Assembly (NCBI GenBank): GCA_030040155.1
Contig: JASHUG010000460.1
Span: 1 to 53,004, forward strand
DNA length: 53,004 bases
From: Streptosporangiaceae bacterium
Lineage (GTDB): Bacteria > Actinomycetota > Actinomycetes > Streptosporangiales > Streptosporangiaceae
Direction of reading: 5' to 3'
Shown here: positions 3,826-29,860 of the stretch, piece by piece
Numbering within the stretch: the first letter of the stretch is position 1
Layout of the letters: each line of letters starts with the position of its first letter
Program-made: the position numbers and the translations under genes
Notes under the pieces: model-generated
What the model was told of the DNA's origin: nothing
What the model saw: only the letters and a program-made list of their open reading frames with translations
The model's database searches: none

Positions 3826-4832
3826 GTACGCGCCGTGATGAACTCGGCTATCGCGGCGAACTCGGCCCGCACGTCGTCTGGCATCTCCGCCTGCTCCAGC
3901 GACTCGAACGCGGACGCGAGCGCGGAGTCGGCGATGGCCTCGGTCCGCTCCTTGCCGCCGGCTGCCTCGACCAGGCTGGCCGCGCGCGCGACCTCGTCCT
4001 CGGTCAGCTCCCCCGGCCTGGCCAGCAGCGCCGCCAGCGCGGATCCGGCTTCGGTGCCGCTGGCCAGCGCGGTCACGATCGGCATCGACTTCTTCCTGGC
4101 GCGCACGTCCGAGCCGACCGGCTTGCCCGTGACCTCGGGCGCCCCCCAGATGCCGAGCAGGTCGTCGGTCATCTGGAAGGCCAGGCCGGCGTTGGCGCCG
4201 AAGGCGGCCAAGCCCATGGCCAGGGTGGCGGGCGCGCCCACGTGCACGGCGCCGATGCTGCACGCGCAGGCCATCAGCGCGGCCGTCTTGTCCCCGGCCA
4301 TATCGAGGCAGTCGGCGACCTGGACGTCATCTCGCCGCTCGAACGCCAGGTCAGCGCCCTGTCCGGCGATCAGCCGCTGCACCGCCGCGGACAGGCAGCG
4401 CGCCGCCCAGATGCCGTAGGGCGGCCGCTCAAGCAGCAGGTCCTCGGCCAGCACCAGCAGCGCGTCTCCGGCCAGTATCGCCCCGCCGATCCCGAATACG
4501 GTCCAGGCCGTCGGCCGGTGCCGGCGCTCGGTGTCGCCGTCCATGATGTCGTCGTGCAGCAGCGAGAAGTTGTGGACCAACTCGACCGCAGCCGCGGCGG
4601 GTACTGCAGCCTCCGGCTTGGAACCGGCCGCCCGCGCAGACAGCAGCGCAAGAGCCGGGCGCAGCGCCTTGCCAGACCCGCTGCGCGTCGGCCGGCCGTC
4701 GGCGTCGGCCAGCCCAAGGTGATAGGCGGCGACGATCCGGACGTCGGCGCTCAGCCGGTTCACGGCCTCCTCGATCGCGGGCCCGACAAGGTCACGGGCA
4801 ACCTGGACCCCGGCTGGCATCGTCACCGTCAT
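3819..4832 (-). CDS. Polyprenyl (isoprenyl) diphosphate synthase of the hopanoid cluster
   Basis: Aspartate-rich motifs DDIMDGDTERRHR and QMTDDLLGIWG; position between shc and hpnE. Confidence 0.92.
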   Translation of the reverse strand: MTVTMPAGVQVARDLVGPAIEEAVNRLSADVRIVAAYHLGLADADGRPTRSGSGKALRPALALLSARAAGSKPEAAVPAAAAVELVHNFSLLHDDIMDGDTERRHRPTAWTVFGIGGAILAGDALLVLAEDLLLERPPYGIWAARCLSAAVQRLIAGQGADLAFERRDDVQVADCLDMAGDKTAALMACACSIGAVHVGAPATLAMGLAAFGANAGLAFQMTDDLLGIWGAPEVTGKPVGSDVRARKKSMPIVTALASGTEAGSALAALLARPGELTEDEVARAASLVEAAGGKERTEAIADSALASAFESLEQAEMPDDVRAEFAAIAEFITARTW

Positions 4833-6343: not shown

Positions 6344-7362
6344 GGGGCATCCCCTGGCGCTGATTGCTGGGTAGCCCCGGCTTGCCGGTCTTGGCCCTGG
6401 CCCGGCCGGCCCGCGCGGGTCAGGGCGCCTCGGCCATCAAGCGCGGGCCTGGACCTGCCGGACAGGCGGCCCAAGCCGGCCAGTGCCCGGACCGCGATCA
6501 TCGCCTTCTCCCCCGCCGGCAGTGACATCCGCTTGTGCAGGGCTACCTGCGGCCGCGCGGAGATGTGCTCGAGCAGGCGCCGGTAGATGCCCGCCATCGC
6601 CCCCGTGCAAGCCGCGCTGCGCCGGTCAAGCATCGGCAGCAGCCGCAGCCCGTTGGCATACCATTCCCTCGCCCGATCGGCCTCGAACCGCATCAGCTCT
6701 GCCATCGGGCCGTCGATTACGCCCTGATCGCCCGTATGGGCCTGGTCCGCGGGCGTCAGGGTGCAGCCGAACCTGGCCAGATCCTCGGCGGGCAGGTAGA
6801 CCCGGCCGTTGCCCAGGTCCTCGCGGATGTCGCGCAGGATGTTCGTCAACTGCAGGGCCACGCCGAGTGCGTCGGCTAGTGCGGAGGCGCTCTCCAGGTC
6901 CGCGCTGCCGAACACCCCGAGTGACAGCCGACCGATCGATCCGGCCACGCACCGGCAGTAATGCTCGAGGCCTGCGAAGTCTGCATAGCTGACCCCGCGG
7001 ACATCGGCCTCGCAGCCGTCGATGAGCTCGCAGAACGCCGCAACCGGGACGGGGAACCGGCGCGCCGCATCCGCCAGCGCGACCAGCACCAGGTCGTCAT
7101 CGGGTGCGGTGCCGTCGGCCAGTGACGTGATGGCCGCCCGGGCCGTGCTCAGCGCGGCGATCCTCTCCGCGACAGGGAGGGTCCCGTCGCCGATGTCATC
7201 GATCCGGCGGGCCAGCGCGTAGACAGCCGAGAGCGCGCGTCGCTTGTCCGGCGGCAGCAGCGCTATCCCGTAGGCGAAGTTCTTCGCCTGCTGCCGGGTG
7301 ATCAGCTCGCAGTGCTGATAGGCGGCCCGGATGCGGGTCGCCTCGAGGGCGGCAGTGGTCAC
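6340..7362 (-). CDS. hpnD: Presqualene diphosphate synthase HpnD
   Basis: Squalene/phytoene synthase family: KNFAYGIALLPPDKRRALSAVYALARRIDDIGD, QLTNILRDIREDLGNGRVYLPAEDL. Confidence 0.9.
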   Translation of the reverse strand: MTTAALEATRIRAAYQHCELITRQQAKNFAYGIALLPPDKRRALSAVYALARRIDDIGDGTLPVAERIAALSTARAAITSLADGTAPDDDLVLVALADAARRFPVPVAAFCELIDGCEADVRGVSYADFAGLEHYCRCVAGSIGRLSLGVFGSADLESASALADALGVALQLTNILRDIREDLGNGRVYLPAEDLARFGCTLTPADQAHTGDQGVIDGPMAELMRFEADRAREWYANGLRLLPMLDRRSAACTGAMAGIYRRLLEHISARPQVALHKRMSLPAGEKAMIAVRALAGLGRLSGRSRPALDGRGALTRAGRPGQGQDRQAGATQQSAPGDAP

Positions 7363-7366
7363 CCGC

Positions 7367-8341
7367 TCACCTGGCCCGTACGTAGGTTGAGATCAGCTCC
7401 ACGGCCGTCCGGCCCTTACCAGGGCGCGGCGTCGCCGACAGGACGTCATACCCGGCGGTCGCGATCGCGGCGAGGGCGGCCCGGCCGCCAGCCACGTAGC
7501 CGGCCACTGCCAACCGGGCGGTGCCACCCAGCGCGCGCACCAGCGGAGCGCCGGCGTTCATCAGCGCACGCGTCCGGCCGACCTCGAACGCGATCAGCCG
7601 CCGAAGCTTGGGTCCGGCCGCGCTGACCAGCAGGTCCTCTTCGGTGCAGCCGTAGGCGCGCATGTCCTCGGCAGGCAGGTAGATCCGGCCGCCCCGCATG
7701 TCCTCGCCAACGTCCTGCAGGTGCTCGGCGAGTTGCAATGCCGTGCAGATGGAGTCGGACAGTTCGGCCCGCTGCGGCGAGTAAGCGCCGAAGACGTGCA
7801 GCACGATCCGCCCGACCGGGTTGGCCGAGAGCCGGCAGTAACCGACCAGATCGTCAAAGGTCTCGTAGCGGGTGATGGTCTGGTCCTGCACGTTGGCCTG
7901 GATCAGGTCGAGGAACAGCTGCATCGGAACCGCGCAGTCGGCTACGACCCCGGTGAGCCCGCGCACGGCGGCCTGCATCGGCCGGCCGCAGTCGCTGGTT
8001 CCCGTGCCGGCCTGGCTGTCAGTCGCGGATCGAGCCAACTCCCGGCCGGCGTACAGCCGGCTGACGTCCTGCGCCAGATCGGCGAGCAGGTCCAAGCGCT
8101 GGCCAGGCGGCGCCAGGTCGCCAGCATCGTCGGTCGTCCGCGCGAACGCGTAGACGGCCATGAGATGCCGCCGATACCTGGCAGGTAGCAGTCGCAGGGC
8201 GACAGGAAAGTTCTCGGCTCCCGCCTTCGCCGGTGCCTGTCGTCCGGCGTCGGTAAGCCAGGACTCCTGCGCGGCAAACTCGCCTGCCGCCCGGCGCGCT
8301 GCGGGCATAGCGGCAGCAGGGGCCGACCGGTCAGAAGTCAT
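7367..8341 (-). CDS. hpnC: Hydroxysqualene synthase HpnC
   Basis: ENFPVALRLLPARYRRHLMAVYAFARTTDDAGD, LAEHLQDVGEDMRGGRIYLPAEDM; start MTSDRSAP preceded by AGGGA (alternative start 8377). Confidence 0.88.
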   Translation of the reverse strand: MTSDRSAPAAAMPAARRAAGEFAAQESWLTDAGRQAPAKAGAENFPVALRLLPARYRRHLMAVYAFARTTDDAGDLAPPGQRLDLLADLAQDVSRLYAGRELARSATDSQAGTGTSDCGRPMQAAVRGLTGVVADCAVPMQLFLDLIQANVQDQTITRYETFDDLVGYCRLSANPVGRIVLHVFGAYSPQRAELSDSICTALQLAEHLQDVGEDMRGGRIYLPAEDMRAYGCTEEDLLVSAAGPKLRRLIAFEVGRTRALMNAGAPLVRALGGTARLAVAGYVAGGRAALAAIATAGYDVLSATPRPGKGRTAVELISTYVRAR

Positions 8342-16909: not shown

Positions 16910-19432
16910 TCAGCGGAGCCTCCGCAGGAACGGGTCCCGCGGCGTCGCGGGCGCCAGTCGGGCCCGCGCCGCCACGACCTGCACGCCGTCGGGCCGCGCG
17001 ACGACCGGATTGAGATCAAGCTCGGCGACCTCGGGCAAGTCGTCTGCCAGCCGCGAAACCCGCAGCAGCACGTCGGCGAGCCCGGCGGCATCCGCCGGCC
17101 GGGATCCGCCATGACCGGCCAGCAACAGCCCGGCCCGCACGCCCCTAATCATTTCCTCCGCGTCGGTGTCGGTCAGCGGCGACAGCCTGGCAACGTTGCC
17201 GCCGAGCACGTCGGTGGCCATGCCGCCGAGGCCAAAGACGATGAGCGCGCCGAATACCGGCTCCTGCACGACTCCGATCAGCGTCTCGACCCCGCCGCCC
17301 TGTGCGGCCTCGTCGGTCCCGGTGACGACGCGGCTAGCGACCAGCGGGATCCGGTAGGCCGACAGCAGCCGGGCGCACTCGTCTTCCGCCAGCCAGCCGC
17401 CGCCAGGGTTTGCGGCCAGAAAGTCCGAGACAACGGAACGGGCGCCGACCGGGTCAGTCCCCTCCAGCTCCGGCACTCGCCCGCGCTGGCCGACCCGCCA
17501 CGCCTGGTAGTCGGCGGCGTGGCCGATGGCCCGGACCGCACTCTCCGGATAGGCATAGGCGGGCACGGCGCCGAGTCTGCCCGGCGCGGTGTCGCCGGGC
17601 TGCGGCCAGAGCATGCGCACCGAGTCCGGCTGGTCAAGTAGGACGGCCGCCATCGGCTTGGACACGCGCACCGAGGTGATCGCGGTGCGCAAATCGGCCA
17701 GCGCCGTCGGCACGCCGACCGCCACCAGTGCGTCCACTGACTCGTCGGCGGCAACCTGCTCAAGGCATGCGCTGAACGCGGCCGCTCCCACGCCCGCCGT
17801 GGTGTCGACCGGCCCGGATACTGCGGCAGCGGCCGGGAGCAGGTCGGCCAGCAGCCGCTGGGTGCCCTCGCCCAGGACCGCTACGCTCAGCCCGACGTCA
17901 GCACATGCGTCGGCGGCCAGCACGCCGACGCCGCCGGCATTCGACACGATCGCGACCCGGCGGCCGCGGGGCAGCGGCTGGCACGACAAGAGCGCCGCCG
18001 TCTCCACCAGCTCACCGAGACTATGCGTGGCGATGATGCCCGCCTGGCCGAACACCGCCTCCTGCGTCAGCAGCGGAGTCGCGGCCCCGGCCGTGTGGGA
18101 AGCGGCGGCGCGCTGCCCGGCGGCAGACCGGCCGCCGATTACTGTCAGCACCGGGATCCGCAGCCCGACTCGCCTGGCCGTGCGGGCGAACGCTCGCGGG
18201 TTGCCGAATGACTCCACATACAGGACCGCCAGCCTGGTCTGCCCGTCCTGATCCCACCACGTCAGCAGGTCGTTGCTGGAAACGTCGTACTTGTCCCCTA
18301 CCGACGCGAACGAGGAGACACCGACGCCGAGCCGCCCGAAGTGCTCGAGCAGCGCGATGCCGATGCCGCCGGACTGCATGACGAGGCCGGCTGCGCCCGG
18401 CTCCGGCTGCGTGGCCGCGAACGTCGCGTTCAGCCGCGCGCTCGGGACCGCGATGCCAAAGCAGTTCGGTCCCACCAGGCGCATCCCGTACCGGCGGCAG
18501 ATCTCCATCAGCTGACGACCGCCAGGTCCCATGCCCGCCGTTACGACGACCAGGCCGTGCACTCCCCGCCGGCCGCACTGCTCGGCGGCATCGGGGACCT
18601 GGGCCGGCGGCAGCGCTATCACTGCGACATCGACGTCCTCAGGCAGGTCGGCGGCCGACCGCAGGCACGGAACATCCGGCCTAGCCTGGCCGTGCGGATT
18701 GACCGCGTACACGGATCCGGCGAAGCCGCCGGCGACGATGTTGTTCAGGATCTCCCGGCCGACCGAGCCGCGCTGGCGGCCCGCCCCGATGACGGCGATG
18801 GAGGATGGCTGGAACAGGTGCCGGAGGCTGGCGACCTCGGCCCGGCTTGCTCGCTCGGCGATCGCGTCCAGGTAGCTGTCCAGCTCTTCGCCCTCAGCGT
18901 CCGGCAGCGGGAAGGTGAGCTCAACGATCCCGTCGCCGAACTTTCGGTGCACAGGCAGCCCGGCGGCGGCGAAGACCCGCTGCATCGCGTAGTTGTCAGG
19001 CAGCGTCTCCGCTTCGAACGCGGTGAGCCCGCGCTGGCGGGCAACCGACACCAGATGCTCAAGCAGGAGCGTGGCAACGCCACGGCCGTGCATGTCATCC
19101 GACACAGCAAACGCGATCTCGGCCCGGCCCGGCTTTCCGGTCGCCTCGTAGGTGGCGACGCCGACAAGCTGGCCGGCCAGCAGCGCCAGCAGCGCCACGT
19201 GATCGGCGTCCTCGGGCCGGGTGACTCGCCTGGCCTCCCGCTCCGGCGCGAGCGGGCTCAGGTTGAAGAACCGGAAATAGGCGTTGCTCGGCGAGAGGTT
19301 CGCGTGCATCTGCTTGACGGCGCTTGCGTCCTCCGGCCGCGCGGGCCGGATGTGCACGGTGCTGCCGTCCGCCAGCAGCGCGTATGCACTGGGAACGGAT
19401 GAATCGTTCATCGGATCATCGCCCCGGCCCAA
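16910..19432 (-). CDS. Bifunctional GNAT acetyltransferase / NDP-forming acyl-CoA synthetase (Pat-like), ATP-grasp region apparently shortened
   Basis: N-terminal GNAT (HIRPARPEDASAVKQMHANLSPSNAYFRFF), CoA-binding (LFQPSSIAVIGAGRQRGSVGREILNNIVAGGFAG), ligase domain and C-terminal end of ATP-grasp (FGALIVFGLGGMATDVLGG...ELDLNPVV). Confidence 0.9.
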   Translation of the reverse strand: MGRGDDPMNDSSVPSAYALLADGSTVHIRPARPEDASAVKQMHANLSPSNAYFRFFNLSPLAPEREARRVTRPEDADHVALLALLAGQLVGVATYEATGKPGRAEIAFAVSDDMHGRGVATLLLEHLVSVARQRGLTAFEAETLPDNYAMQRVFAAAGLPVHRKFGDGIVELTFPLPDAEGEELDSYLDAIAERASRAEVASLRHLFQPSSIAVIGAGRQRGSVGREILNNIVAGGFAGSVYAVNPHGQARPDVPCLRSAADLPEDVDVAVIALPPAQVPDAAEQCGRRGVHGLVVVTAGMGPGGRQLMEICRRYGMRLVGPNCFGIAVPSARLNATFAATQPEPGAAGLVMQSGGIGIALLEHFGRLGVGVSSFASVGDKYDVSSNDLLTWWDQDGQTRLAVLYVESFGNPRAFARTARRVGLRIPVLTVIGGRSAAGQRAAASHTAGAATPLLTQEAVFGQAGIIATHSLGELVETAALLSCQPLPRGRRVAIVSNAGGVGVLAADACADVGLSVAVLGEGTQRLLADLLPAAAAVSGPVDTTAGVGAAAFSACLEQVAADESVDALVAVGVPTALADLRTAITSVRVSKPMAAVLLDQPDSVRMLWPQPGDTAPGRLGAVPAYAYPESAVRAIGHAADYQAWRVGQRGRVPELEGTDPVGARSVVSDFLAANPGGGWLAEDECARLLSAYRIPLVASRVVTGTDEAAQGGGVETLIGVVQEPVFGALIVFGLGGMATDVLGGNVARLSPLTDTDAEEMIRGVRAGLLLAGHGGSRPADAAGLADVLLRVSRLADDLPEVAELDLNPVVARPDGVQVVAARARLAPATPRDPFLRRLR

Positions 19433-19485: not shown

Positions 19486-19872
19486 TCAGCTCTGCGGTGG
19501 CTGCGGCCTGGTCATGCTCTGGTAGACCGCCAGCAGCGCGGCCTTCTGGCTCTCGTCGAGCTGTGCGTCGGTGCGGATCGCACGCTCCACGCTGTCAGCT
19601 GCCGTCCGGCCGGGTTCGGTTCGCGCGCTCTCCTCCCGGTCCAGCAGGCCGGCCTGGGAGAGCAGCATCTCAGCCGACACGTTGAGCGCGTCGGACAGCT
19701 GCTTGAGCACCCGCACCGTCGGCTGGTGCATGCCGCGCTCCAGCTCGCTGAGGTAAGGATTCGACAGGCTCGCCAGCTCGGCGAGCTCGCGAAGAGTGAG
19801 GTTAGCGAGCTTCCGCTGGCTGCGGATGAAGGCGCCGAATGCCTCCATCTGCGCATCCCATTGGCTGGCCAC
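19486..19872 (-). CDS. XRE-family HTH regulator (phasin-linked, copy 1)
   Basis: AQMEAFGAFIRSQRKLANLTLRELAELASLSNPYLSELERGMHQPTVRVLKQLSDALNVSAEMLLSQAGLL. Confidence 0.9.
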   Translation of the reverse strand: MASQWDAQMEAFGAFIRSQRKLANLTLRELAELASLSNPYLSELERGMHQPTVRVLKQLSDALNVSAEMLLSQAGLLDREESARTEPGRTAADSVERAIRTDAQLDESQKAALLAVYQSMTRPQPPQS

Positions 19873-19893
19873 GATTCTCCCGGTCGATGCTGG

Positions 19894-20217
19894 TCAGGCG
19901 TTGCTCGTCTTGTTGCCCTTGTCGCTGCCGCTTGGGTTGTGGAGCAGCGGGGACGCTGCCTTCAGCACGTCCTCGGCGAACTTCCGCTGGTTCGCCAGCA
20001 GTTGCTCGGCGAAGTCGTAGGCGTTCTTCACCAGTCCCTCTGGCTTGGGCAGCTTGTCCGCAATGTTCAGGCTGTCGGCAAACGGCAGGTTGAGCTCGGG
20101 CAGCTCTGGCTTCATGGACTGGACGGTGGCGGCCCACTTCTCGATGGCCTCCACCACCGCGGCCTGACTCTTGCTGATGGCGTTCATGATCTCGTTCTGG
20201 AACTCCTCGGCTGCCAT
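19894..20217 (-). CDS. Phasin-like protein (copy 1)
   Basis: 107 aa, MAAEEFQNEIMNAISKSQAAVVEAIEKWAATVQ...AYDFAEQLLANQRKFAEDVLKAASPLL; AGGAGGA RBS; paired with XRE gene. Confidence 0.7.
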   Translation of the reverse strand: MAAEEFQNEIMNAISKSQAAVVEAIEKWAATVQSMKPELPELNLPFADSLNIADKLPKPEGLVKNAYDFAEQLLANQRKFAEDVLKAASPLLHNPSGSDKGNKTSNA

Positions 20218-20255
20218 TTCTCCTCCTCGTAAGGTTCGCGCCAAGTTATTCGCTC

Positions 20256-20285
20256 AGTATAACTAGCACCGGATCGGTACGTCAA
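20256..20285 (-). promoter_or_regulatory. Promoter of phasin-like copy 1: TTGACG-N18-TATACT
   Basis: Near-consensus -35 and -10 on the minus strand upstream of 20217. Confidence 0.6.
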
Positions 20286-20348
20286 GCTAACGAGTCCGGC
20301 CTCGCCGCCGGCCCGCCGGTACCGCCGCGGGCGTGGAAGGATCTGCAG

Positions 20349-21554
20349 ATGGCCTGCACACTGCACGTCTCCTGGGACGAGAAGCTGACCGGCTATGACT
20401 TCGGGCCGCAGCACCCGCTCGCCCCGATCCGGGTGAAGCTGACGATCGAGCTTGCGACCGCGTTCGGCGTACTGGCGAGCGAGCAGGTGAGCACGCAGGC
20501 CGCGCCGCCGGCCTCGGACGCGGAGCTGGAACTCGTGCACGACCCCGTTTACCTGGCCGCGGTCCGGTACGCCAGCGGACTGCGCGACGACGGCGCAACG
20601 GCCGTGGATATGAGAACCTTGCTGAGGCACGGCCTAGGCACTCCGGACGATCCGATCTTCGGCGGCATGCACGAAGCCTCGGCGCTCGTAGTCGGCGCCA
20701 CGCTCGGCGCGGTCAGGGCAGTGTGGTCCGGCGCCGTCGAGCACGGGGCCAACATCGCGGGCGGGCTGCACCATGCCATGCGGGCGAGCGCCAGCGGCTT
20801 CTGCATTTACAACGACCCGGCGATCGCGATCGCGTGGCTGCTGGCCCAGGGGGTCGAACGGATTGCCTATGTCGACATCGACGTGCATCACGGGGATGGG
20901 GTCCAGGCAGCGTTCTGGAATGACCCGCGCGTGCTCACGATCAGCCTGCATCAGGATCCGCTCACGCTATTCCCTGGCACGGGCCTGGCGGCCGAAACCG
21001 GCGGCCCCGACGCGGACGGATTCGCGGTCAACGTACCCCTCCCGCCCGGCACCCAGGACGCGGGCTGGCTGCGCGCCTTTCATGCCGTCGTGCCGCCGCT
21101 GGTACGCGGATTCAATCCGCAGATCCTGGTGAGCCAGCATGGTTGCGACACGCACAGGACCGATCCGCTGGCCAACCTGCAGCTCACCATCGACGCTCAG
21201 CGCACGGCGCACGCTGCCCTGCATAGGCTGGCGCACGAGGCAGCGAACGGCCGCTGGCTGCTTACCGGCGGCGGCGGGTACCAGCTCGTCCAGGTGGTCC
21301 CGAGGACGTGGACGCATCTGCTGGCCGAGGCGGCGGGCGAGCCGATCGACCCGTCCACTCCGACGCCAGCGAGCTGGCGCGAGTACGTGAGCCGCGTCTC
21401 CTCGCAGGCCGCACCCGAGCTCATGACCGAAGGTGGCAGCGGCCGGTTCTCCGCGTTTGAGACCGGCTACGACCCAGGCGATCCGGTCGACCAGGCCATC
21501 ATGGCGACCAGGAATGCCGTGTTCCCGTCGCACGGCCTGATGCCCGCACCCTAA
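20349..21554 (+). CDS. Histone deacetylase superfamily / acetoin utilization protein AcuC-like
   Basis: GGLHHAMRASASGFCIYNDPAIAIAWL, YVDIDVHHGDGVQAAFWNDPRVLTISLHQ, LVSQHGCDTHRTDPLANL, GGGGY. Confidence 0.93.
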   Translation: MACTLHVSWDEKLTGYDFGPQHPLAPIRVKLTIELATAFGVLASEQVSTQAAPPASDAELELVHDPVYLAAVRYASGLRDDGATAVDMRTLLRHGLGTPDDPIFGGMHEASALVVGATLGAVRAVWSGAVEHGANIAGGLHHAMRASASGFCIYNDPAIAIAWLLAQGVERIAYVDIDVHHGDGVQAAFWNDPRVLTISLHQDPLTLFPGTGLAAETGGPDADGFAVNVPLPPGTQDAGWLRAFHAVVPPLVRGFNPQILVSQHGCDTHRTDPLANLQLTIDAQRTAHAALHRLAHEAANGRWLLTGGGGYQLVQVVPRTWTHLLAEAAGEPIDPSTPTPASWREYVSRVSSQAAPELMTEGGSGRFSAFETGYDPGDPVDQAIMATRNAVFPSHGLMPAP

Positions 21555-21602
21555 CCGGCCCCCGCAGCCGGCCGCGTTCGGCGGCCCGCCAGCCGGAGGG
21601 CC

Positions 21603-22844
21603 TCAGTCGGTGAGCGTCGCGGAGCCCGCGGCGGGCGCGGCAGCTGACCCGGCCACCTCGGGCTCGACGACATCCGTAGCTTCCTGCAGCGCCCCGGCGG
21701 GCGCCTGAGCTGTCCCGTTGGCCGCGCGCTCCGCGGGCGACGCCGTGGCCTGCCAGACCTCGCGGACGATCACCTGCATGGCCCCTGCGACCGGAATGGC
21801 CAGCAGCGCGGCCACGAAGCCGCCGAAGAGCCCGCCGATCCAGCTGCCGATCGACGCGCCGACCAGGATCGCGACGAGCACGAGCAGCGGGCTGATCTTG
21901 ACAGTCCTGCTCATGATCACCGGGTTCAGGACGTGGTTCTCGACCTGGGTGTAGACGAGAAAGACGACAAGCGTCACGATGCCGGCCGGCCAGACGGAGT
22001 GGGCGGCCGCGAACAGGACTACCGGGATCCCGGCCAGGGCCCCGCCAATCATTGGCAGGAAGTCGACCAGCGCGACCCACAGCGCCCACAGGAACGGGAA
22101 CTGGACGCCGAGCGCGAGCAGCGTCACCAGCACGACAAGGCCAGCTATCACCGAGGTCGCGAAGTCGCCGAGCATGAATCCCGTGACCGAGCGATTCACC
22201 TCGCTCGCCACGAGCATGAACCTTGCCGCCCTGCTCGGCCGCATCAGGCCAAGCAGGCCGCGCCGCAGCCTCGGCCCCTCCAGCAGCAGCAGGACGACCA
22301 GCACGAAAATCGTGAACAGCTCGAAGGCGATCGACGCCGCGCCCTCGCCCAGGCTCAGGGCAGGCGCGGCCAGGTCCTTCCCGTACACGACGAGTTTCGG
22401 CGCGTTCTTCGTGACCCACTGCTGCAGGTGGTATTTCGTGACCAGCTTGCCGAACCAGCCCTTGCCGTGCTCGGCCGTCGTCACAGCGTTCGGCAGGTAG
22501 TCGGCAAGGTGAGACAAGCCGTTGATCAAGGGATAGCCGAACGCGACGGCCAGCCCGGCAAACGCCGCCACACTCAGCAAGGCGACCAGCGTTACCGCGA
22601 GTCCGCGCCGCCGCAGGCCTCGCTGGAGCGTCACCACGACCGGGTTCAGCAGCAGCGCGATGAACCCGGCGACCACGAACAGCAGCAGGACACCGCGGAG
22701 CCGGTCCACTAGCTTGCCCGCGAGGTAGGCGAGCACCACCACGCCGACGAAGGCGAGGATCGCGCGCAGCGGGACGTGCCGCGACTCCGCGAAGCGCCAG
22801 AGCCTCGCCCGCCGCGTGTCGGACTCGCGGATCTCGTCAGTCAC
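21603..22844 (-). CDS. AI-2E transporter family permease
   Basis: Multi-TM; FLWALWVALVDFLPMIGGALAGIPVVLFA, VYTQVENHVLNPVIMSRTVKISPLLVLVAILVG. Confidence 0.88.
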   Translation of the reverse strand: MTDEIRESDTRRARLWRFAESRHVPLRAILAFVGVVVLAYLAGKLVDRLRGVLLLFVVAGFIALLLNPVVVTLQRGLRRRGLAVTLVALLSVAAFAGLAVAFGYPLINGLSHLADYLPNAVTTAEHGKGWFGKLVTKYHLQQWVTKNAPKLVVYGKDLAAPALSLGEGAASIAFELFTIFVLVVLLLLEGPRLRRGLLGLMRPSRAARFMLVASEVNRSVTGFMLGDFATSVIAGLVVLVTLLALGVQFPFLWALWVALVDFLPMIGGALAGIPVVLFAAAHSVWPAGIVTLVVFLVYTQVENHVLNPVIMSRTVKISPLLVLVAILVGASIGSWIGGLFGGFVAALLAIPVAGAMQVIVREVWQATASPAERAANGTAQAPAGALQEATDVVEPEVAGSAAAPAAGSATLTD

Positions 22845-23054
22845 GTCGCAAGCATGACAGGTTGAGTCGGCCGCCTGCACCGGTGACCCAGCCTGTAGGC
22901 GGTATATCCGCTGGTCTTTGGGCCAGGCTGAGTCATCAGGACCGTCCCTAGGGTCCGTCTCAGGGTTGTGATCCGCCAGACAGGGCGGGCATTCCGGGTC
23001 GGGTCGGGGCTCTTCCCGATACCCCGCGGCCGGCCGCCGGAGCAGGCTGAAGTC

Positions 23055-23354
23055 ATGAACACAGCAAGTGAGCACGCCGCAGGCAGCACCCCGAACTCAT
23101 CCGCTCCGCAGTCCGGTCCGCCGCCGCTGCGCCGGCCCGCAGACGACCGGATGATCGCGGGTGTCGCGGCGGGCGCGGCCAGGGCCGTCGGGGTCGACCC
23201 GGTGATCGCGCGGATCGGCTTCGTCGTGCTGACCCTTTGCGGCGCGGTTGGCGTGGTGTTGTACGTAGCCGGCTGGCTGCTGATCCCAGATGAGCGATCC
23301 GGACGCTCGCTAGCGGCCGGCCTGTTCGGGTCTGCCGCCGCCCATCACAGTTGA
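23055..23354 (+). CDS. PspC domain protein
   Basis: LRRPADDRMIAGVAAGAARAVGVDPVIARIGFVVLTLCGAVGVVLYVAGWLLIPDE. Confidence 0.88.
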   Translation: MNTASEHAAGSTPNSSAPQSGPPPLRRPADDRMIAGVAAGAARAVGVDPVIARIGFVVLTLCGAVGVVLYVAGWLLIPDERSGRSLAAGLFGSAAAHHS

Positions 23355-23369
23355 CAGGGAGATCCTTAC

Positions 23370-23537
23370 ATGTCCTCCAGCCGACTCCTCGGCCGCCTGA
23401 TTCTGCTGGCGATCATCGCCCTCCTCTTCATTTCCGTCCTGCACGTGATCGCCTGGGTGCTAGTGCCTGTCCTGTGGATGGTCCTGCTCTGCGCGATCGT
23501 CGTCCTCGTGCTGCGCCCATGGAGACGGCTCTGGTAG
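23370..23537 (+). CDS. 55-aa small membrane protein (missed by the ORF track)
   Basis: MSSSRLLGRLILLAIIALLFISVLHVIAWVLVPVLWMVLLCAIVVLVLRPWRRLW*, CAGGGAG upstream, 15 bp after PspC stop. Confidence 0.65.
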   Translation: MSSSRLLGRLILLAIIALLFISVLHVIAWVLVPVLWMVLLCAIVVLVLRPWRRLW

Positions 23538-23552
23538 CTGCCCGTGTGCCGA

Positions 23553-23582
23553 TTGACATGTGACTAAATGGTCACCTATTCT
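23553..23582 (+). promoter_or_regulatory. Promoter TTGACA-N18-TATTCT with GTGAC-N6-GTCAC operator inside the spacer
   Basis: TTGACA 23553-23558; GTGACTAAATGGTCAC 23560-23575; TATTCT 23577-23582. Confidence 0.65.
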
Positions 23583-23588
23583 CAAGGC

Positions 23589-24350
23589 GTGGACGAGGTG
23601 TTCAAGGCGCTCGCCGACCCGACCAGGCGCGAACTGCTCGACGAGCTGTTCCGGGAGGACGGCCAGACGCTGAACGCGCTCGAACAGCGCTTCCCGATGA
23701 CGCGCTTCGGGGTCATGAAGCACCTGAAGCAGCTCGAGGAGGCGGGCCTCATCGTTACCAAGCGGCGCGGCCGGGAGAAGCTCCACTTCCTGAACCCCGT
23801 CCCAATCCGCCTCATCCACGACCGGTGGGTGAGCAAGTACGCCGCGCCGTGGGCCGCCGGCCTGTCCGACCTCAAGCGAGACCTGGAGAAGTCGATGGAG
23901 AAGGTTTTCGAGATCTACATCCGCACGACTCCGGAGCGCCTCTGGGAGGCGATCACGAACCCGGAGATCCGCGCGAGGTATCACTTCGGTGCCGGCGTCA
24001 CCTCGGACTGGACGCCCGGCTCGCATTTCGAGTTCGGTCACGCCAGCGGCCAGTTGCTCGGCGAGGGCGTGAACCTTGAGGTAGACCCGCCCCGGCGGCT
24101 GGTGCAGTCGATGGTCGCACTGTGGAGCGAAGAGGCGAAGAACGACGGCGCCACCAGGATCACCTGGGAGATCCTGCCCCTGGGCGACTCGTGCCGGCTG
24201 CGGGTCACCCATGACCAGCTGCACGAGGGCGCCAGCAGCCAGCTCTACGGCGGCTGGCCAATGATCCTCTCCGGCCTCAAGACCTGGCTGGAGACCGGTC
24301 AGCCGCTGACCACGCCCGGCTCGCTGATGTACGGCGAAGGTGGCGCCTGA
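23589..24350 (+). CDS. ArsR-type HTH fused to SRPBCC (AHSA1-like) domain
   Basis: VDEVFKALADPTRRELLDELFREDGQTLNALEQRFPMTRFGVMKHLKQLEEAGLI then KVFEIYIRTTPERLWEAITNPE; ORF extends to ATG 23568 but the GTG at 23589 fits the promoter. Confidence 0.9.
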   Translation: MDEVFKALADPTRRELLDELFREDGQTLNALEQRFPMTRFGVMKHLKQLEEAGLIVTKRRGREKLHFLNPVPIRLIHDRWVSKYAAPWAAGLSDLKRDLEKSMEKVFEIYIRTTPERLWEAITNPEIRARYHFGAGVTSDWTPGSHFEFGHASGQLLGEGVNLEVDPPRRLVQSMVALWSEEAKNDGATRITWEILPLGDSCRLRVTHDQLHEGASSQLYGGWPMILSGLKTWLETGQPLTTPGSLMYGEGGA

Positions 24351-24509
24351 AGGCTCGCCAACCTCGATCGCCCTGGTCCGGGCGAAGGGAGGCGTCTGCG
24401 CCGGAGTCGAGACCGGGGTCAGGTTCACGACCGATTGCCGCACGAATACGCCCGGAGTAGCGTCCAAAAGGCGGCCCAGATACCCCGCGTGACCGCAGCT
24501 GGAGGTGCC

Positions 24510-26135
24510 ATGCCCGGTCGGCAGAGCGTGGACGCGGTCATCGTCGGAGCCGGGTTTTCCGGCCTTTACCAGCTGTACCGGCTGCGGGAGCTCGGGCTGA
24601 GCACGCGCGTGTTCGAAGCCGGCGACGGCGTGGGCGGCACCTGGTACTGGAATCGCTACCCTGGCGCCCGCTGCGACATCACGAGCCTGGCTTACTCGTA
24701 CTCGTTCTCCCCTGAGCTTGAGCAGGAGTGGGAGTGGACGGAGAAGTACCCGACCCAGACCGAAGTCCTGCGCTATCTCAATCACGTCGCGCAGCGGTTC
24801 GACCTGCTGCGGGACATCTCCCTCGGCGCAAGAGTGGTCAGCGCCCTGTGGGACGACACGACGGCCAGGTGGACAGTCACGACCGACGCCGGTGAGCAGG
24901 TCGATGCGCAGTTCGTCATCATGGCCACCGGCGTCCTGTCCGCGTTCAAGCTGCCCGAGGTGCCAGGCCTAGACCGTTATCGGGGACGCACGCACCACAC
25001 CGCGCGCTGGGGCACGGATGAAGTGCGTTTCGACGGCCTGCGCGTGGCGGTCATCGGAACCGGCTCGTCCGGCATCCAGTGCATACCGCTGATCGCCGAG
25101 CAGGCCGCTGACCTGACCGTCTTCCAGCGAACCGCGAACTTCTCGACCCCAGCAGGCAACCGGCCGCTTGATCCGGCCCAGGTTGCCGAGATGAAGGGGA
25201 GCTATCGCGCATACCGGGAGGCGCAGCGGACGTCGTGGTACGGAGTCCCGGCCGAGCCACCGACCGAGCTTGCGCTCTCGGTGCCGGGACGCGAACGCCT
25301 GGCCACCTACGAGGCCGGCTGGGCGAAGGGCGAGATCGTCGGGCTGATCAGCTGTTATGCCGATATCCTCATCGACCCCGCGGCGAACGAGAGCGCGGCC
25401 GAGTTTGCCCGGTCGAAGATTCGCGCGGTGGTCACCGACCCGGAACTGGCGGAAGCGCTGTCGCCGCGCACGTTCCCGATCGGGACCAAGCGGCTGTGCC
25501 TGGATACCGGCTATTACGAGACGTTCAACCAGCCGCACGTGCACCTGGTCGACCTGCGCGAGACGCCGCTGGTCGAGTTCACGCCGGTTGGCCTGCGCAC
25601 GACGGACCGCGAATTCGAATTCGACGCGATCGTCTTTGCCACCGGGTTCGACGCGATGACCGGCGCCCTGAACGCCATCAACGTCCGCGGACGTGACGGC
25701 GTGTCCCTGGCTGAGGAATGGGCTGCCGGCCCGCGCACCTATCTCGGCATCGCCATCGCAGGCTTCCCGAACCTCTTCACGGTCACCGGGCCGCTGAGTC
25801 CGTCCGTGCTCAGCAACATGATCGTCTCGATCGAGCAGCACGTGGAGTGGATCAGCGACTGCGTCGCGCACGTCCGCTCGGCCGGCTCGGCCGCGATCGA
25901 GGCAACGCCGGAGGCCGAGGCAGGCTGGGTGCAGCACGTCGCCGAGGTCGGGTCGGTCACCCTGTTCCCGCGGGCCGACTCCTGGTACATGGGCGCGAAC
26001 GTACCGGGCAAGGCACGGGTGTTCCTGCCGTACATCGGCGGCGTGGGCACCTACCGGCAGATCTGTGACGAGATCGCGGCGGATAACTACCGCGGCTTCA
26101 CCCTCAGGGCGGCCGGCGAGCCGGCGCACACCTGA
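24510..26135 (+). CDS. Flavin-containing monooxygenase, Baeyer-Villiger (BVMO) type
   Basis: AVIVGAGFSGLYQLYRLRELG, BVMO-like signature YRGRTHHTARW, second Rossmann VAVIGTGSSGIQ; GGAGGT RBS. Confidence 0.9.
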   Translation: MPGRQSVDAVIVGAGFSGLYQLYRLRELGLSTRVFEAGDGVGGTWYWNRYPGARCDITSLAYSYSFSPELEQEWEWTEKYPTQTEVLRYLNHVAQRFDLLRDISLGARVVSALWDDTTARWTVTTDAGEQVDAQFVIMATGVLSAFKLPEVPGLDRYRGRTHHTARWGTDEVRFDGLRVAVIGTGSSGIQCIPLIAEQAADLTVFQRTANFSTPAGNRPLDPAQVAEMKGSYRAYREAQRTSWYGVPAEPPTELALSVPGRERLATYEAGWAKGEIVGLISCYADILIDPAANESAAEFARSKIRAVVTDPELAEALSPRTFPIGTKRLCLDTGYYETFNQPHVHLVDLRETPLVEFTPVGLRTTDREFEFDAIVFATGFDAMTGALNAINVRGRDGVSLAEEWAAGPRTYLGIAIAGFPNLFTVTGPLSPSVLSNMIVSIEQHVEWISDCVAHVRSAGSAAIEATPEAEAGWVQHVAEVGSVTLFPRADSWYMGANVPGKARVFLPYIGGVGTYRQICDEIAADNYRGFTLRAAGEPAHT

Positions 26136-26201
26136 CCCCACCGACCAGGACGCCGCGAGCCGACAGAGCCGGGCGTGTCGTGGGATGCCTAAGCGGTCCG
26201 C

Positions 26202-26232
26202 TTGACAAATTACGCGGGACGCTTGATATAGT
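26202..26232 (+). promoter_or_regulatory. Promoter of phasin/HBHA-like copy 2 (TTGACA ... GATATAGT), with CGCTTGAYA direct repeat
   Basis: TTGACA 26202-26207; TATAGT 26227-26232; CGCTTGACA and CGCTTGATA about 20 bp apart. Confidence 0.55.
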
Positions 26233-26264
26233 TTGCATTGTAGAGCCTAGAGGAGGACTCAGTG

Positions 26265-27074
26265 ATGGACACTCGTGCCGTCGCGAAGGAAGTTCAGGAG
26301 CAGGTCGCTGCGGCCGTGCAGAGGAGCCACGAGCGGTTGCGCAAGGGCCAGGACCAGGTACGCAAGGGTCGCGAGACCGTTGGCGTTGCCGTCCGCGCTG
26401 GTAACCAGCTCGCAAGGGCGGTCATGCCGAGCCTGCCGCGCAGGCCGGACGTGCACCTTCCGTCGGTCAGCGACCTGACCAACCCGGACAAGCTTCGCAC
26501 CCATGCCCACGACCTGGCCGGACAGGCCCGCGCCACCCAGCGGAAGTTTGCCGACAGTGCGGGCCAGGTGCTCGCCACGCAGCGAAAGCTGGCCGGCAAG
26601 GCCGTCGAGCTTGCGACCCCGCTCGTGACCGAGGGCGTCAGCCGACTCGCGCACAGGGCGGGTTCGCTGTCGTCGAGCCTCCGGACCGAGCGCGCCGAGC
26701 CGGCCAGGTCGGCAGAAGTGACCGCGTCGCCCGCCGAGACCAGCCGGGTCGCCCCGGCCGCTGCCGAAGCCGCTGAGCCGGAGTCAGGTCAGGCCCAGCC
26801 GAGCAAGGCAGAGGCAGGCGCCGCCGCGCCGAGCACCGCAGAGGCCGATGCCGGCGAGGCAGGCGCCGTCGGCACAGGCGCCTCCAGCGCAGACACGGCC
26901 AACGCAGACACGGCCAACGCGAGGACCACCAAGCCGAAGGCCACCCGCCCCGCTAAGACGAGCACAGCTAAGACGAGCACAGCCAAGACGCCCACGGCGA
27001 AGACGCCCACGGCGAAGGCCAAGGCCAGCGCCGGCGAGCGAACCACCCCTAAGCCGCGTCAGGCCAAGGAGTAG
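26265..27074 (+). CDS. Phasin/HBHA-like protein with Ala/Lys-rich low-complexity tail (copy 2)
   Basis: Amphipathic N-terminal half with HAHDLAGQARATQRKFADSAGQVLATQRKLAG; C-terminal KPKATRPAKTSTAKTSTAKTPTAKTPTAKAKA; AGGAGGA RBS. Confidence 0.7.
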   Translation: MDTRAVAKEVQEQVAAAVQRSHERLRKGQDQVRKGRETVGVAVRAGNQLARAVMPSLPRRPDVHLPSVSDLTNPDKLRTHAHDLAGQARATQRKFADSAGQVLATQRKLAGKAVELATPLVTEGVSRLAHRAGSLSSSLRTERAEPARSAEVTASPAETSRVAPAAAEAAEPESGQAQPSKAEAGAAAPSTAEADAGEAGAVGTGASSADTANADTANARTTKPKATRPAKTSTAKTSTAKTPTAKTPTAKAKASAGERTTPKPRQAKE

Positions 27075-27151
27075 GCAGCCGCTTCGAGGTGACGCCCGGC
27101 GGCGGCCGCATGGCCAGCCGCCGGGCACGTCTTTCGCAGGGAGGAAGTCAG

Positions 27152-27520
27152 ATGACCGAGCCGCGGGATTCGCAAATGGAGGCCCTGGGCGCGTTCATCA
27201 GGAACAAGCGCAAGCTGGCCAACCTGTCGCTGCGCCAGCTAGCCGAGCGAACCAAGCTCTCCAATCCGTACCTCAGCCAGATTGAGAGGGGCTTGCACCA
27301 GCCCTCGGTCAGGGTGATCCGGCTCATATCCGATGCGCTGAACGTCCCGGCCCAGACGCTGCTGACCCAGGCCGGCCTGCTCCACCACCGGGATAAGCAC
27401 GACCCTTCCGCGCCCACGGAGATCAGCGTGGAGGCGGCCATCCAGGCAGAAAGCCGCCTCACCGACGCGCAGAAGAGCGCATTGATTTCGGTGTTCCGTA
27501 GCATGCTGCCGGCCGAGTAG
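27152..27520 (+). CDS. XRE-family HTH regulator (phasin-linked, copy 2)
   Basis: SQMEALGAFIRNKRKLANLSLRQLAERTKLSNPYLSQIERGLHQPSVRVIRLISDALNVPAQTLLTQAGLL. Confidence 0.9.
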   Translation: MTEPRDSQMEALGAFIRNKRKLANLSLRQLAERTKLSNPYLSQIERGLHQPSVRVIRLISDALNVPAQTLLTQAGLLHHRDKHDPSAPTEISVEAAIQAESRLTDAQKSALISVFRSMLPAE

Positions 27521-27605: not shown

Positions 27606-28802
27606 GTGACTGACCTGAGCCCGCAACCGGAACCCCTGCCGGTGCGCCAGCCGCTGCCGCAGCGCGGCGAGCCACTTGCGCAGCGTAGTGGGGAGCTCCC
27701 GCAGCGCGGCGGTCCATCATCCCCCGCCGGCGAGGCCCTTCCCCAGCGCGGCGCCCCCATGAGCCCGGCCGGCGAGGCCCTGCCGCAGCGCGGCGGTCCG
27801 GCATCCCCCACGGGCGAGGCCCTCCCGCAGCGCGGAGCGCCGCTCCCCCAACGCGGAACTCCGCTCCCGCAGCGCGGAACGCCGCTCCCCCAACGCGGAA
27901 CGCCGCTCCCGCAACGCGGCGAGCCACTGCCGCAGCGCGGCGGCGGCGCCGCAGACGGGGCATCCGAGCGCCAGGACAGCGCACCCCTGCCCCGGCGTAC
28001 CGGGCGGACCAGGCCAGCGGGCCGGCACCGCAGCCCGCACCGGCTGTCGGTCGCCTCCGATGCCCCGGCCTTGGTCATCGCCGTCCCAGGCGCGGCCGAG
28101 GCCGACACGGCCGGGGTCGGCGCCGAAGTCGCCGCGACCGCCTCGGCGTCCTGCCCGGGCGTCGACGTTCGGGTCGGCTACCTGGAGGGAACGACCGACC
28201 CCCTGTCGGACTGCCTGGACGGACCGGACGACTCAGAGCAGCCAGGCTGCGTGGTCGTTCCGCTGCTGCTGAGCCCGAATGTCCGCGTGGACCAGGCCAT
28301 CAGCAGTCTCACGGCGGACGCCGGGGAGCATGTCATCGTGGCCGCCCACCTCGCCCCTCACCCGCTGGTGGCCGAGGGCCTGCACGCCAGGCTGGCCGAG
28401 GCCGGGCTGGTCCGCCACGCCCGCTCGAGCGGCCTCAGCATCTCCACCGGCGGCCGCGGCATCGTCGTGCTGTCGGATGTCGGGGAAGAGGCGGCCAGCG
28501 CCGCGGCCGTGGCGGCCGTGCTGCTGGCCTCACGACTGTCGGTTCCGGTCATGCCGGCATCGCTCGGCGAGCCGGTGAGCATCGCCGACGCGGTAACCCG
28601 CCTGGACATGTCCGGCGCGGCCAGCCCGGCCCTCGCCCCGTGCCTGATCGGTCCCGAGGTCCCGGCGGACGTGCTGAAGAGCCTCAGCACGGCGCTCGGG
28701 GCGCCGATCGCTGCGCCGCTCGGCTCGCATCAGGCGGTCGGCCAACTCGTCGCGATCCGGTACGGCGCTGCCCTGGCCCGCATGAGCCTGGCGGCCGGCT
28801 GA
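27606..28802 (+). CDS. CbiX/sirohydrochlorin-chelatase-like protein with repetitive LPQRG N-terminus
   Basis: C-terminal region APALVIAVPGAAEADT...CVVVPLLLSPNVRVD...VAAHLAPHPLVAEGLHARLAEAGL; N-terminal tandem LPQRGxP units. Confidence 0.7.
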   Translation: MTDLSPQPEPLPVRQPLPQRGEPLAQRSGELPQRGGPSSPAGEALPQRGAPMSPAGEALPQRGGPASPTGEALPQRGAPLPQRGTPLPQRGTPLPQRGTPLPQRGEPLPQRGGGAADGASERQDSAPLPRRTGRTRPAGRHRSPHRLSVASDAPALVIAVPGAAEADTAGVGAEVAATASASCPGVDVRVGYLEGTTDPLSDCLDGPDDSEQPGCVVVPLLLSPNVRVDQAISSLTADAGEHVIVAAHLAPHPLVAEGLHARLAEAGLVRHARSSGLSISTGGRGIVVLSDVGEEAASAAAVAAVLLASRLSVPVMPASLGEPVSIADAVTRLDMSGAASPALAPCLIGPEVPADVLKSLSTALGAPIAAPLGSHQAVGQLVAIRYGAALARMSLAAG

Positions 28803-29047
28803 CCCAGCCGTTCCGGCCGCGGGCGAACCCGGACGAGACTGGCGGCTGAAGGGCTGTCGCGGGGACACCCCTCGTTCCCGGCCTGAAAAGATTGTCACCT
28901 CTTGGCTTTCCGTTGACACCCACGGGTCTGGTGCGCTGGGCTTCATCATGTGAACCGCGCACGCTGGTTCGCAATACGAACTTCAGTGCATCGCCGGACT
29001 CGTGCCCCAAACGAGCCGGCGACGCCTGCCCGAGAGAGGTGAACGGC

Positions 29048-29860
29048 TTGAGCGAGTGGAATGCCATGACCTACGCGGGTAAGGACACGATCCTGCGCGT
29101 GGTTCGCAACGATGCAGGCCAGATGTTCGAGCTCGCGGAACGGCCCACTGCGTGGGATGCGCCGACCGCCTGCGAGAACTGGCAGGTCAAGGACGTGATC
29201 GGCCACATCGTCGACACCACCGAGGGCTACTTCAAGGCCTTCGACATCGCCCGCAGTGGCGCCGAGGCGCCGGCCGCGTACGGCCTCGTGGGCATGCACG
29301 AGCGGGCGGGCCAGAGCGCCAAGTCGTTTGAGCTGTCGCAGGCGGAGATGATGGCACGGGCCCGCGCCGACCTCGACCAGATGATGGGACTCCTCGAGTC
29401 GCTCACCGAGGAGGAGTGGGGCGGGCTCATGGTCCCGCACTTCTACATGGGCCCGGTGCCCGCGTTCATCTACGCGGCCGGCCAGCTGATGGACTACGGC
29501 GTGCACACGTGGGACATCCGCCAGGGCAGCGGCCAGGCGCACGTGCTGTCAGCGGACACGGCGGACCTGCTCGTTCCGTTCATGTTCATCATCTGGCAGT
29601 CCACGATCAGGCCAGACGCGGACCTGTCGCCGTTCTCCATCGGCGTGCGGGTCAGCGGCCGTAACGGCGGCGACACCCGCGTCTCGATCGGCGAGCAGGG
29701 CATGACTTACGAGCCCGGCGACGTCTCCGACCTGCCCGCGGTGCTGGAGTTCGACCCCGGCAGCATGGTGCTGACCGCCTTCGGCCGGGTCAACGGCGGC
29801 ACGGCGAGCGGCGATCAGGCTCTGGCCAACCGCTTCCTCAACCTCTTCTACCGCATCTGA
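29048..29860 (+). CDS. DinB/mycothiol-dependent maleylpyruvate isomerase-like protein
   Basis: MTYAGKDTILRVVRNDAGQMFELAERPTAWDAPTACENWQVKDVIGHIVDTTEGYFKAFD; TTG 29048 has the better RBS, ATG at 29066 is the alternative. Confidence 0.75.
   Translation: MSEWNAMTYAGKDTILRVVRNDAGQMFELAERPTAWDAPTACENWQVKDVIGHIVDTTEGYFKAFDIARSGAEAPAAYGLVGMHERAGQSAKSFELSQAEMMARARADLDQMMGLLESLTEEEWGGLMVPHFYMGPVPAFIYAAGQLMDYGVHTWDIRQGSGQAHVLSADTADLLVPFMFIIWQSTIRPDADLSPFSIGVRVSGRNGGDTRVSIGEQGMTYEPGDVSDLPAVLEFDPGSMVLTAFGRVNGGTASGDQALANRFLNLFYRI

What the first reader, a model, noticed from the sequence alone, without database searches (positions are those of the whole stretch)
19486..27520. Duplicated phasin/HBHA-like + XRE regulator module, two copies about 6 kb apart
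Copy 1 (minus, 20217 to 19486) and copy 2 (plus, 26265 to 27520) both have an amphipathic phasin-like gene followed by an XRE gene. The XRE proteins are clearly paralogous (QMEAFGAFIRSQRKLANLTLRELAELASLSNPYLSELERGMHQP vs QMEALGAFIRNKRKLANLSLRQLAERTKLSNPYLSQIERGLHQP). The phasin-like proteins share a QRKFA core. This recalls the M. tuberculosis Rv0474-hbhA pair and the Rhodococcus lipid-droplet protein/regulator pair (MLDS/MLDSR). Two diverged copies, one short and one with a Lys-rich tail, suggest specialised granule or lipid-droplet coats each with its own regulator, possibly cross-regulating.
Basis: partly seen in the sequence, partly recalled or inferred. Interest (0 to 1): 0.75.

Follow-up and report, generated by a model that had tools for sequence, protein, structure and literature searches.

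The report
Two self-regulated storage-granule coat operons
This uncultured soil actinobacterium carries two related two-gene operons, each pairing a predicted storage-granule coat protein with its own DNA-binding switch and a shared type of control site; relatives keep the same genes beside bioplastic (PHA) synthesis genes, which suggests an actinobacterial way of matching granule coat to granule surface.

Summary
In detail: two coat+XRE gene pairs lie at the stated coordinates. The XRE proteins are 57% identical. The coat proteins are true homologues: a profile of the short type finds exactly two matches in the genome, copy 1 (E 3e-44) and copy 2 (E 1e-9). They are ancient paralogues, not a local duplication. 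Neither is the counterpart of Rv0474-hbhA / MLDSR-MLDS; that is a third, DUF2516-linked XRE elsewhere in the genome. Short-type relatives lie beside PHA synthase, thiolase, acetoacetyl-CoA reductase, PHA depolymerase or wax-ester/TAG synthase; PhaC occurs in all 13 genera with the family but in 2 of 55 without. Both window operons, and most relatives, carry a 16-bp palindromic operator over the -10 (GCTWNNTATANTTWGC type) and a half-site over the -35. In the own genome the slightly relaxed motif occurs only at these two promoters. Best reading: phasin operons, each autorepressed by its XRE, repression probably relieved when the XRE is drawn to the granule, as with PhaR/PhaP and MLDSR/MLDS. Copy 2 adds a Lys/Ala-rich disordered tail, suggesting a granule-nucleoid tether like PhaF. 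Binding, localisation and titration are inferred. New variant of a known kind.

The parts
19894..20217 (-). Copy 1 coat gene: short phasin-like protein, 107 aa, two predicted amphipathic helices (res. 2-34 and 59-92)
   Evidence: Translation; family profile A2 E 2.7e-44; AF2 helices, low confidence; hydrophobic moment above shuffles; relatives beside phaC
19486..19872 (-). Copy 1 XRE regulator, 128 aa, 21 bp downstream of the coat gene
   Evidence: HTH_3 E 5e-14; 57% identical to copy 2 XRE
20252..20267 (-). Copy 1 operator O2, GCTAGTTATACTGAGC, overlapping the -10 TATACT
   Evidence: identical 16-mer before a phasin downstream of phaC in sister genome G008
20278..20287 (-). Copy 1 upstream half-site O1, GCTTGACGTA, overlapping the -35 TTGACG, 20 bp before O2
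26265..27074 (+). Copy 2 coat gene: phasin-like core (helices 3-56, 74-143) plus disordered Lys/Ala/Thr/Pro-rich tail (144-269), 269 aa
   Evidence: (E 9.7e-10)
27152..27520 (+). Copy 2 XRE regulator (start ATG 27152 by ribosome-binding site; an upstream GTG at 27089 is less likely)
   Evidence: HTH_3 E 2.5e-14; orthologues start at the same place
26221..26236 (+). Copy 2 operator O2, GCTTGATATAGTTTGC, overlapping the -10 TATAGT
   Evidence: conserved in G003, G006, G008, G027
26200..26209 (+). Copy 2 upstream half-site O1, GCTTGACAAA, overlapping the -35 TTGACA, 21 bp before O2

Best explanation
Each pair is an autoregulated phasin (storage-granule coat) operon. The first gene makes a small amphipathic coat protein that binds the surface of a storage inclusion. 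The second makes an XRE repressor that binds a 16-bp palindrome on the -10 and a half-site on the -35, two helical turns apart, shutting off both genes. When granule surface appears, the XRE is probably drawn to the granule (or to exposed coat or polymer), repression falls and coat protein is made in proportion to surface, as with PhaR/PhaP and MLDSR/MLDS. Copy 1 (short) is most likely a PHA phasin. Copy 2 (long) is an ancient paralogue whose Lys/Ala-rich tail probably tethers its inclusion to DNA, the PhaI/PhaF arrangement. SHOWN by sequence: operon anatomy, homology of both genes, the operator and its specificity, and the link of the family to PHA genes. INFERRED: granule binding, repression, titration, DNA binding by the tail.
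For: Homology of both gene types. Neighbours in relatives confirmed by NCBIfam: class I/II PhaC, BktB, PhaB-like reductase, PHA depolymerase, WS/DGAT (loci L059, L064, L065, L072, L073, L018; L107, L112, L114; L156). In another family the XREs lie inside a phaB-XRE-phaC-phaZ-XRE cluster (L176). PhaC within 6 kb of 7 of about 24 short coat genes, chance about 3e-12; PhaC in 16/28 genomes with the family vs 5/223 without, and 13/13 genera vs 2/55. Operator: in the own 5.6-Mb genome, exact matches to GCTWNNTATANTNWGC only at the two window promoters; in 12 genomes every strict match precedes a coat gene, including two orphan coat genes in G036, and the reversed control gives none. Two sites per promoter as in MLDSR, whose 16-bp box and sequestration by lipid droplets are published (PMC5504291); PhaR titration by granules (PMC3079617, abstract); PhaF tail (PMC5658603).
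Against: No Pfam phasin family reaches its cut-off (best Phasin_2 E 0.02-0.04). AF2 confidence is low (pLDDT 63 and 60, pTM 0.32 and 0.21) and the fold search finds nothing. The window pairs themselves have no PHA gene beside them. Copy 2 occurs in G003 (93% complete) where neither PhaC nor WS/DGAT was found, and in G001/G002 without PhaC. The co-occurrence is confounded by shared ancestry and incomplete assemblies. The operator contains the -10 and -35, so part of its conservation is promoter conservation.
Confidence: 0.74

Rival explanations
1. Lipid-droplet coat and regulator proper: both pairs coat triacylglycerol/wax-ester droplets like MLDS/HBHA, and the PHA neighbourhood in relatives is incidental.
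For: WS/DGAT genes in G000; the G004 pair lies 2-3 kb from a WS/DGAT gene (L018); XRE superfamily and two-site promoter shared with MLDSR.
Against: WS/DGAT is common in the whole family (178 of 251 genomes over the cut-off) and does not track the coat genes: not found in G003, G006, G010, G021, G025, G042, which have them; PhaC does track them. The MLDSR-type XRE is a separate clade with a different operator.
Confidence: 0.15
2. Copy 1 is a PHA phasin but copy 2 is a membrane- or nucleoid-associated protein (HBHA/NAP-like) with no granule role, its XRE simply autoregulating it.
For: Copy 2 type is present in genomes without detected PhaC (G001, G002, G003, G062, G100, G123, G142); Lys/Ala-rich tails in nearly all long-type members; conserved non-PHA neighbourhood; HBHA itself reported as a nucleoid-associated protein (PMC10665949, title and abstract).
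Against: Homology to the short type, same operator class, two helical segments; most of those genomes do have WS/DGAT.
Confidence: 0.3
3. The XRE acts on a wider regulon (general stress or carbon regulator) and the coat gene is only one target.
For: XRE-only relatives exist in L074 and L080; in another phylum an XRE protein binds the R. eutropha phaP1 and phaZ5 promoters (PMC11332829).
Against: The strict operator is found only before coat genes in 12 genomes; in G000 only at the two window promoters.
Confidence: 0.1

Closest known systems
PhaR-PhaP (e.g. Ralstonia eutropha): granule-titrated repressor of phasin
   Same: Small amphipathic coat protein plus autoregulating repressor; coat family linked to PHA synthase; predicted release of repression by granule surface
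   Different: Regulator here is XRE (HTH_3), not the PhaR fold; coat protein does not reach any Pfam phasin model; titration not shown
MLDSR-MLDS (Rhodococcus jostii RHA1) and Rv0474-hbhA
   Same: XRE regulator and amphipathic coat protein in one operon; two operator sites per promoter; 16-bp inverted repeat; Lys-rich tail on MLDS/HBHA and on copy 2
   Different: Gene order is coat then regulator here (the operon is given as mldsr and mlds in RHA1); operator centre TATA instead of the MLDSR-type box; XRE is a different clade; the true counterpart (XRE-[HbhA-like]-DUF2516) is a separate locus, G000:C375, which in this genus lacks the HbhA-like gene
PhaI / PhaF phasins of Pseudomonas putida
   Same: A short phasin and a paralogous phasin with a positively charged, Lys/Ala/Pro-rich DNA-binding tail
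   Different: No XRE partner; PhaI and PhaF lie in one operon beside phaC; sequence kinship to this family not found by Pfam
GA14 phasin of Rhodococcus ruber
   Same: Small actinobacterial PHA phasin
   Different: No XRE pairing is mentioned in the passages read; sequence comparison not made here

Membership tests
PHA phasin (functional class) | Small amphipathic helical protein | tested here: met
   AF2 helices (low confidence); hydrophobic moment above shuffles, p 0.002-0.025 for the four helices
PHA phasin (functional class) | Genetic link to PHA synthesis genes | tested here: met
   For the short-type family in relatives; not adjacent in the window itself
PHA phasin (functional class) | Match to a curated phasin family (Phasin, Phasin_2, NCBIfam) | tested here: not met
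   Phasin_2 E 0.039, 14.6 bits vs cut-off 24.9; no NCBIfam phasin model
PHA phasin (functional class) | Binding to PHA granules | not testable with these tools
   Needs localisation or granule proteomics
MLDSR-MLDS / Rv0474-hbhA orthologues | XRE in the DUF2516-linked clade | tested here: not met
   Separate clades, 100/100; DUF2516 beside the other XRE
MLDSR-MLDS / Rv0474-hbhA orthologues | Operator of the GNTWGC-N4-GCTANC type | tested here: not met
   Same length and outer GNTW, but inner TATA and different inner arms
XRE (Cro/CI-type HTH_3) regulators | HTH_3 domain over the curated cut-off | tested here: met
   52.5 and 53.5 bits vs 23
PhaR-like titrated repressor | Repressor leaves the phasin promoter by binding the granule | not testable with these tools
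   Inferred by analogy with PhaR and MLDSR
PhaF-like DNA-tethering phasin (copy 2) | Positively charged Lys/Ala/Pro-rich C-terminal tail after a phasin domain | tested here: inconclusive
   Last 60 residues: 14 K/R, 4 D/E, 82% A/K/P/T/S/G; tail disordered; but the whole 120-residue tail is only +3

The most novel reading that the evidence does not exclude
An actinobacterial phasin regulon controlled by XRE repressors through a conserved -10-centred palindrome takes the place of PhaR: one regulator controls several phasin genes in some genomes, and in this genus two largely insulated paralogous circuits serve two granule coats, one of them a DNA tether, that may belong to chemically different inclusions in the same cell.
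Probability: 0.45. Interest if true: 0.7.

Novelty: new variant of a known kind. Interest (0 to 1): 0.55.

Why it matters
Known granule-titrated phasin control is described for PhaR in PHA makers and for MLDSR in one Rhodococcus lipid-droplet system. A coat family without any curated model, paired with an XRE of its own clade and a short, highly specific operator, gives a sequence handle for finding PHA/lipid-inclusion coats and their regulons across uncultured soil Actinomycetota, makes the titration idea testable in a second XRE branch, and supplies candidate granule-binding tags and a sensor-like promoter.

Tried and rejected
Recent tandem duplication: rejected by the XRE tree, in which long-type XREs are one clade across genera g1, g20 and g55, and by copy 1 and copy 2 lying on different contigs with different neighbours in G005. 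Rv0474-hbhA orthology: rejected. Pfam, NCBIfam and Foldseek as a route to function of the coat protein: no usable match. The search for related loci with the coat alignment: not conserved enough for patterns; with the XRE it found three clade members, two of them sister genomes already held. phaC as a direct XRE target: the strict operator is found before coat genes only. Operator in the G000 phaC locus: the coat gene and most of its promoter are missing there; only a -35-like GCTTGACACGG remains. Toxin-antitoxin reading of a small protein plus XRE: considered and dropped, because the coat gene family sits in pha clusters and also occurs without the XRE beside it.
Full report
OBSERVATION. Both gene pairs exist as described. 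Copy 1 (minus strand) is a 107-aa coat-like protein (20217-19894) followed 21 bp later by a 128-aa XRE protein (19872-19486). Copy 2 (plus strand) is a 269-aa coat-like protein (26265-27074) followed by an XRE protein whose ribosome-binding site points to a start at 27152 (to 27520). The XREs are 57% identical (E 7e-46); the coat proteins align at 25% (BLASTP E 5e-7). A profile from 17 short-type relatives (A2), run against the whole 5.6-Mb genome, gives exactly two matches: copy 1 (E 2.7e-44) and copy 2 (E 9.7e-10).

HOST. The window is contig C62 of a 73.6% complete assembly. The own genome encodes PHA synthase (two hits) and WS/DGAT (two hits).

ORIGIN OF THE TWO COPIES. In the XRE tree the XREs partnered with long coat proteins (copy 2 type) form one clade, support 100/99, across genera g1, g20 and g55. 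Copy 1 XREs (G000, G008, G005; 100/99) stand among the short-type XREs. The split is older than these genera, so this is not a local duplication. The close spacing is seen only in G000 and its sister G008; in G005 the two lie on different contigs with different neighbours. Long-type loci keep a CbiX-like gene and a gene homologous to window 29039-29860 downstream in three genera.

LINK TO STORAGE GRANULES. Across 251 genomes of the family the coat profile hits 28 genomes in 13 genera and PhaC_N hits 21 genomes in 15 genera. PhaC is present in 16 of 28 coat-positive and 5 of 223 coat-negative genomes (Fisher p 7e-14), and in 13 of 13 coat-positive against 2 of 55 other genera. These genomes are related and many are incomplete, so the p-values overstate independence. 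Position is the stronger evidence. Short coat genes directly follow phaC in G008 (phaB-phaA-phaC-coat), G019 and G042. They lie with phaC and further PHA genes in L059, L064, L065 and L072, and with phaB-phaA in L073 (PhaC in L065). More distant pairs with XRE first lie beside phaC in L081 and L082. In L156 the coat-XRE pair diverges from a MaoC-like gene and phaC, and in another family two XREs flank a phaC-phaZ pair downstream of phaB (L176). NCBIfam matches identify class I/II PhaC, BktB, acetoacetyl-CoA reductase-like, PHA depolymerase and WS/DGAT; the PhaC proteins score just below the class-specific cut-offs. About 7 of 24 short coat genes have phaC within 6 kb, where chance gives about 0.4% each. 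WS/DGAT is widespread in the family and does not track the coat genes, although in G004 the pair lies close to one (L018).

OPERATOR. Upstream of the coat genes lies a conserved promoter in which a 16-bp palindrome covers the -10: GCTAACTATAGTTAGC in three g55 genomes (perfect palindrome), GCTTGATATAGTTTGC for copy 2 and GCTAGTTATACTGAGC for copy 1. A second element, GCTTGACATA-like, covers the -35 and begins 18-22 bp upstream in most promoters. Exact matches to GCTWNNTATANTNWGC in the own genome are these two promoters alone. In 12 genomes the stricter motif has 11 distinct sites, all before coat genes, and the reversed control has none. Two of the sites, in G036, precede coat genes that have no adjacent XRE. 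Motif variants also precede further orphan coat genes: in G008 (identical 16-mer to window copy 1, between phaC and the coat gene), G042, G019 (two) and G141. This is the signature of a phasin regulon. Part of the conservation is the promoter itself; the outer arms are the operator-specific part.

RELATION TO MLDSR / Rv0474. The genome holds a third related XRE (C375, 44% identical) next to a DUF2516 gene, the arrangement that I recall as Rv0474-Rv0475(hbhA)-Rv0476. In other genera a helical gene, with weak apolipoprotein-like Pfam matches in two of the cases, sits between them; it is missing in this genus. This clade is separate (100/100) and has its own palindrome, GYTTGCAATTGCAAGC type, close to the published MLDSR box GNT(T/A)GCTNNTGCTANC (PMC5504291).

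MECHANISM. Proposed: XRE represses its own operon by covering -10 and -35; growth of granule surface recruits the XRE (or removes it through coat/polymer contact), so coat synthesis follows surface area. This is documented for PhaR (PMC3079617, PMC3570403, abstracts) and, with both positive and negative effects, for MLDSR, which lipid droplets sequester. Here it is inferred. Copy 1 is predicted as two amphipathic helices (AF2 pLDDT 63). Copy 2 has two longer helices and a disordered tail of 126 residues whose last 60 residues carry 14 K/R and 4 D/E, a pattern like PhaF, whose histone-like AAKP-repeat tail binds DNA while PhaI is the short paralogue (PMC5658603). The tail as a whole is only weakly positive (+3 over 120 residues), so the tether role is a guess. 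Copy 2 type also occurs in G003, where neither PhaC nor WS/DGAT was found; its inclusion is therefore uncertain.

CROSS-REGULATION. The three copy 1 XREs have Glu at position 38 of the recognition-helix region (SNPYLSELERG), where every other clade member shown has Gln, and the copy 1 operators have G instead of T/A at position 13. The G008 phaC-linked coat gene carries the copy 1 version. This suggests partial insulation of the two circuits, but three related sequences are weak evidence, and G042 has the same operator variant without a known Glu-38 partner.

VERDICT. It works like PhaR/PhaP and MLDSR/MLDS; membership in curated phasin families and in the MLDSR clade was tested and not met.

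Noticed in passing
window 16910-19411 and L105 2424-5150: The gene after copy 1 is a GNAT + NDP-forming acyl-CoA synthetase-like protein; a 72% identical paralogue follows phaC in the same genome (and phaC-coat in G008), so copy 1 and the phaC locus share a neighbour.
   Followed up: partly
window 20349-21554: A histone-deacetylase-family protein lies divergent from copy 1 and is kept there in G005 and G008; with the GNAT-type neighbour it could form a protein acylation/deacylation pair near the coat operon.
   Followed up: partly
L105 2264-2423 (G000:C264): Between phaC and its downstream neighbour the coat gene present in G008 is missing; only a -35-like GCTTGACACGG remains, suggesting loss of a PHA-linked coat gene in this genome.
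   Followed up: partly
L020 5884-6927 (G000:C375): XRE-DUF2516 locus without the HbhA-like gene that other genera keep between them; its palindrome GYTTGCAATTGCAAGC is conserved.
   Followed up: yes
window 311-8308: Squalene-hopene cyclase with two squalene/phytoene synthase-like genes and further genes of a probable hopanoid cluster.
   Followed up: partly
window 27606-28070: The N-terminal part of the CbiX-like reading frame consists of repeats of about PLPQRGEP; repeat number differs between relatives.
   Followed up: no
L059, L099/L111, L101 (genome G036): Three coat genes and one detected adjacent XRE in one genome; the two orphan coat genes each carry a strict operator match.
   Followed up: partly
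L176 2080-5383 (G320:C185): Two clade-related XRE genes flank a phaC-phaZ pair in a genome of another family; no coat gene was recognised there.
   Followed up: no
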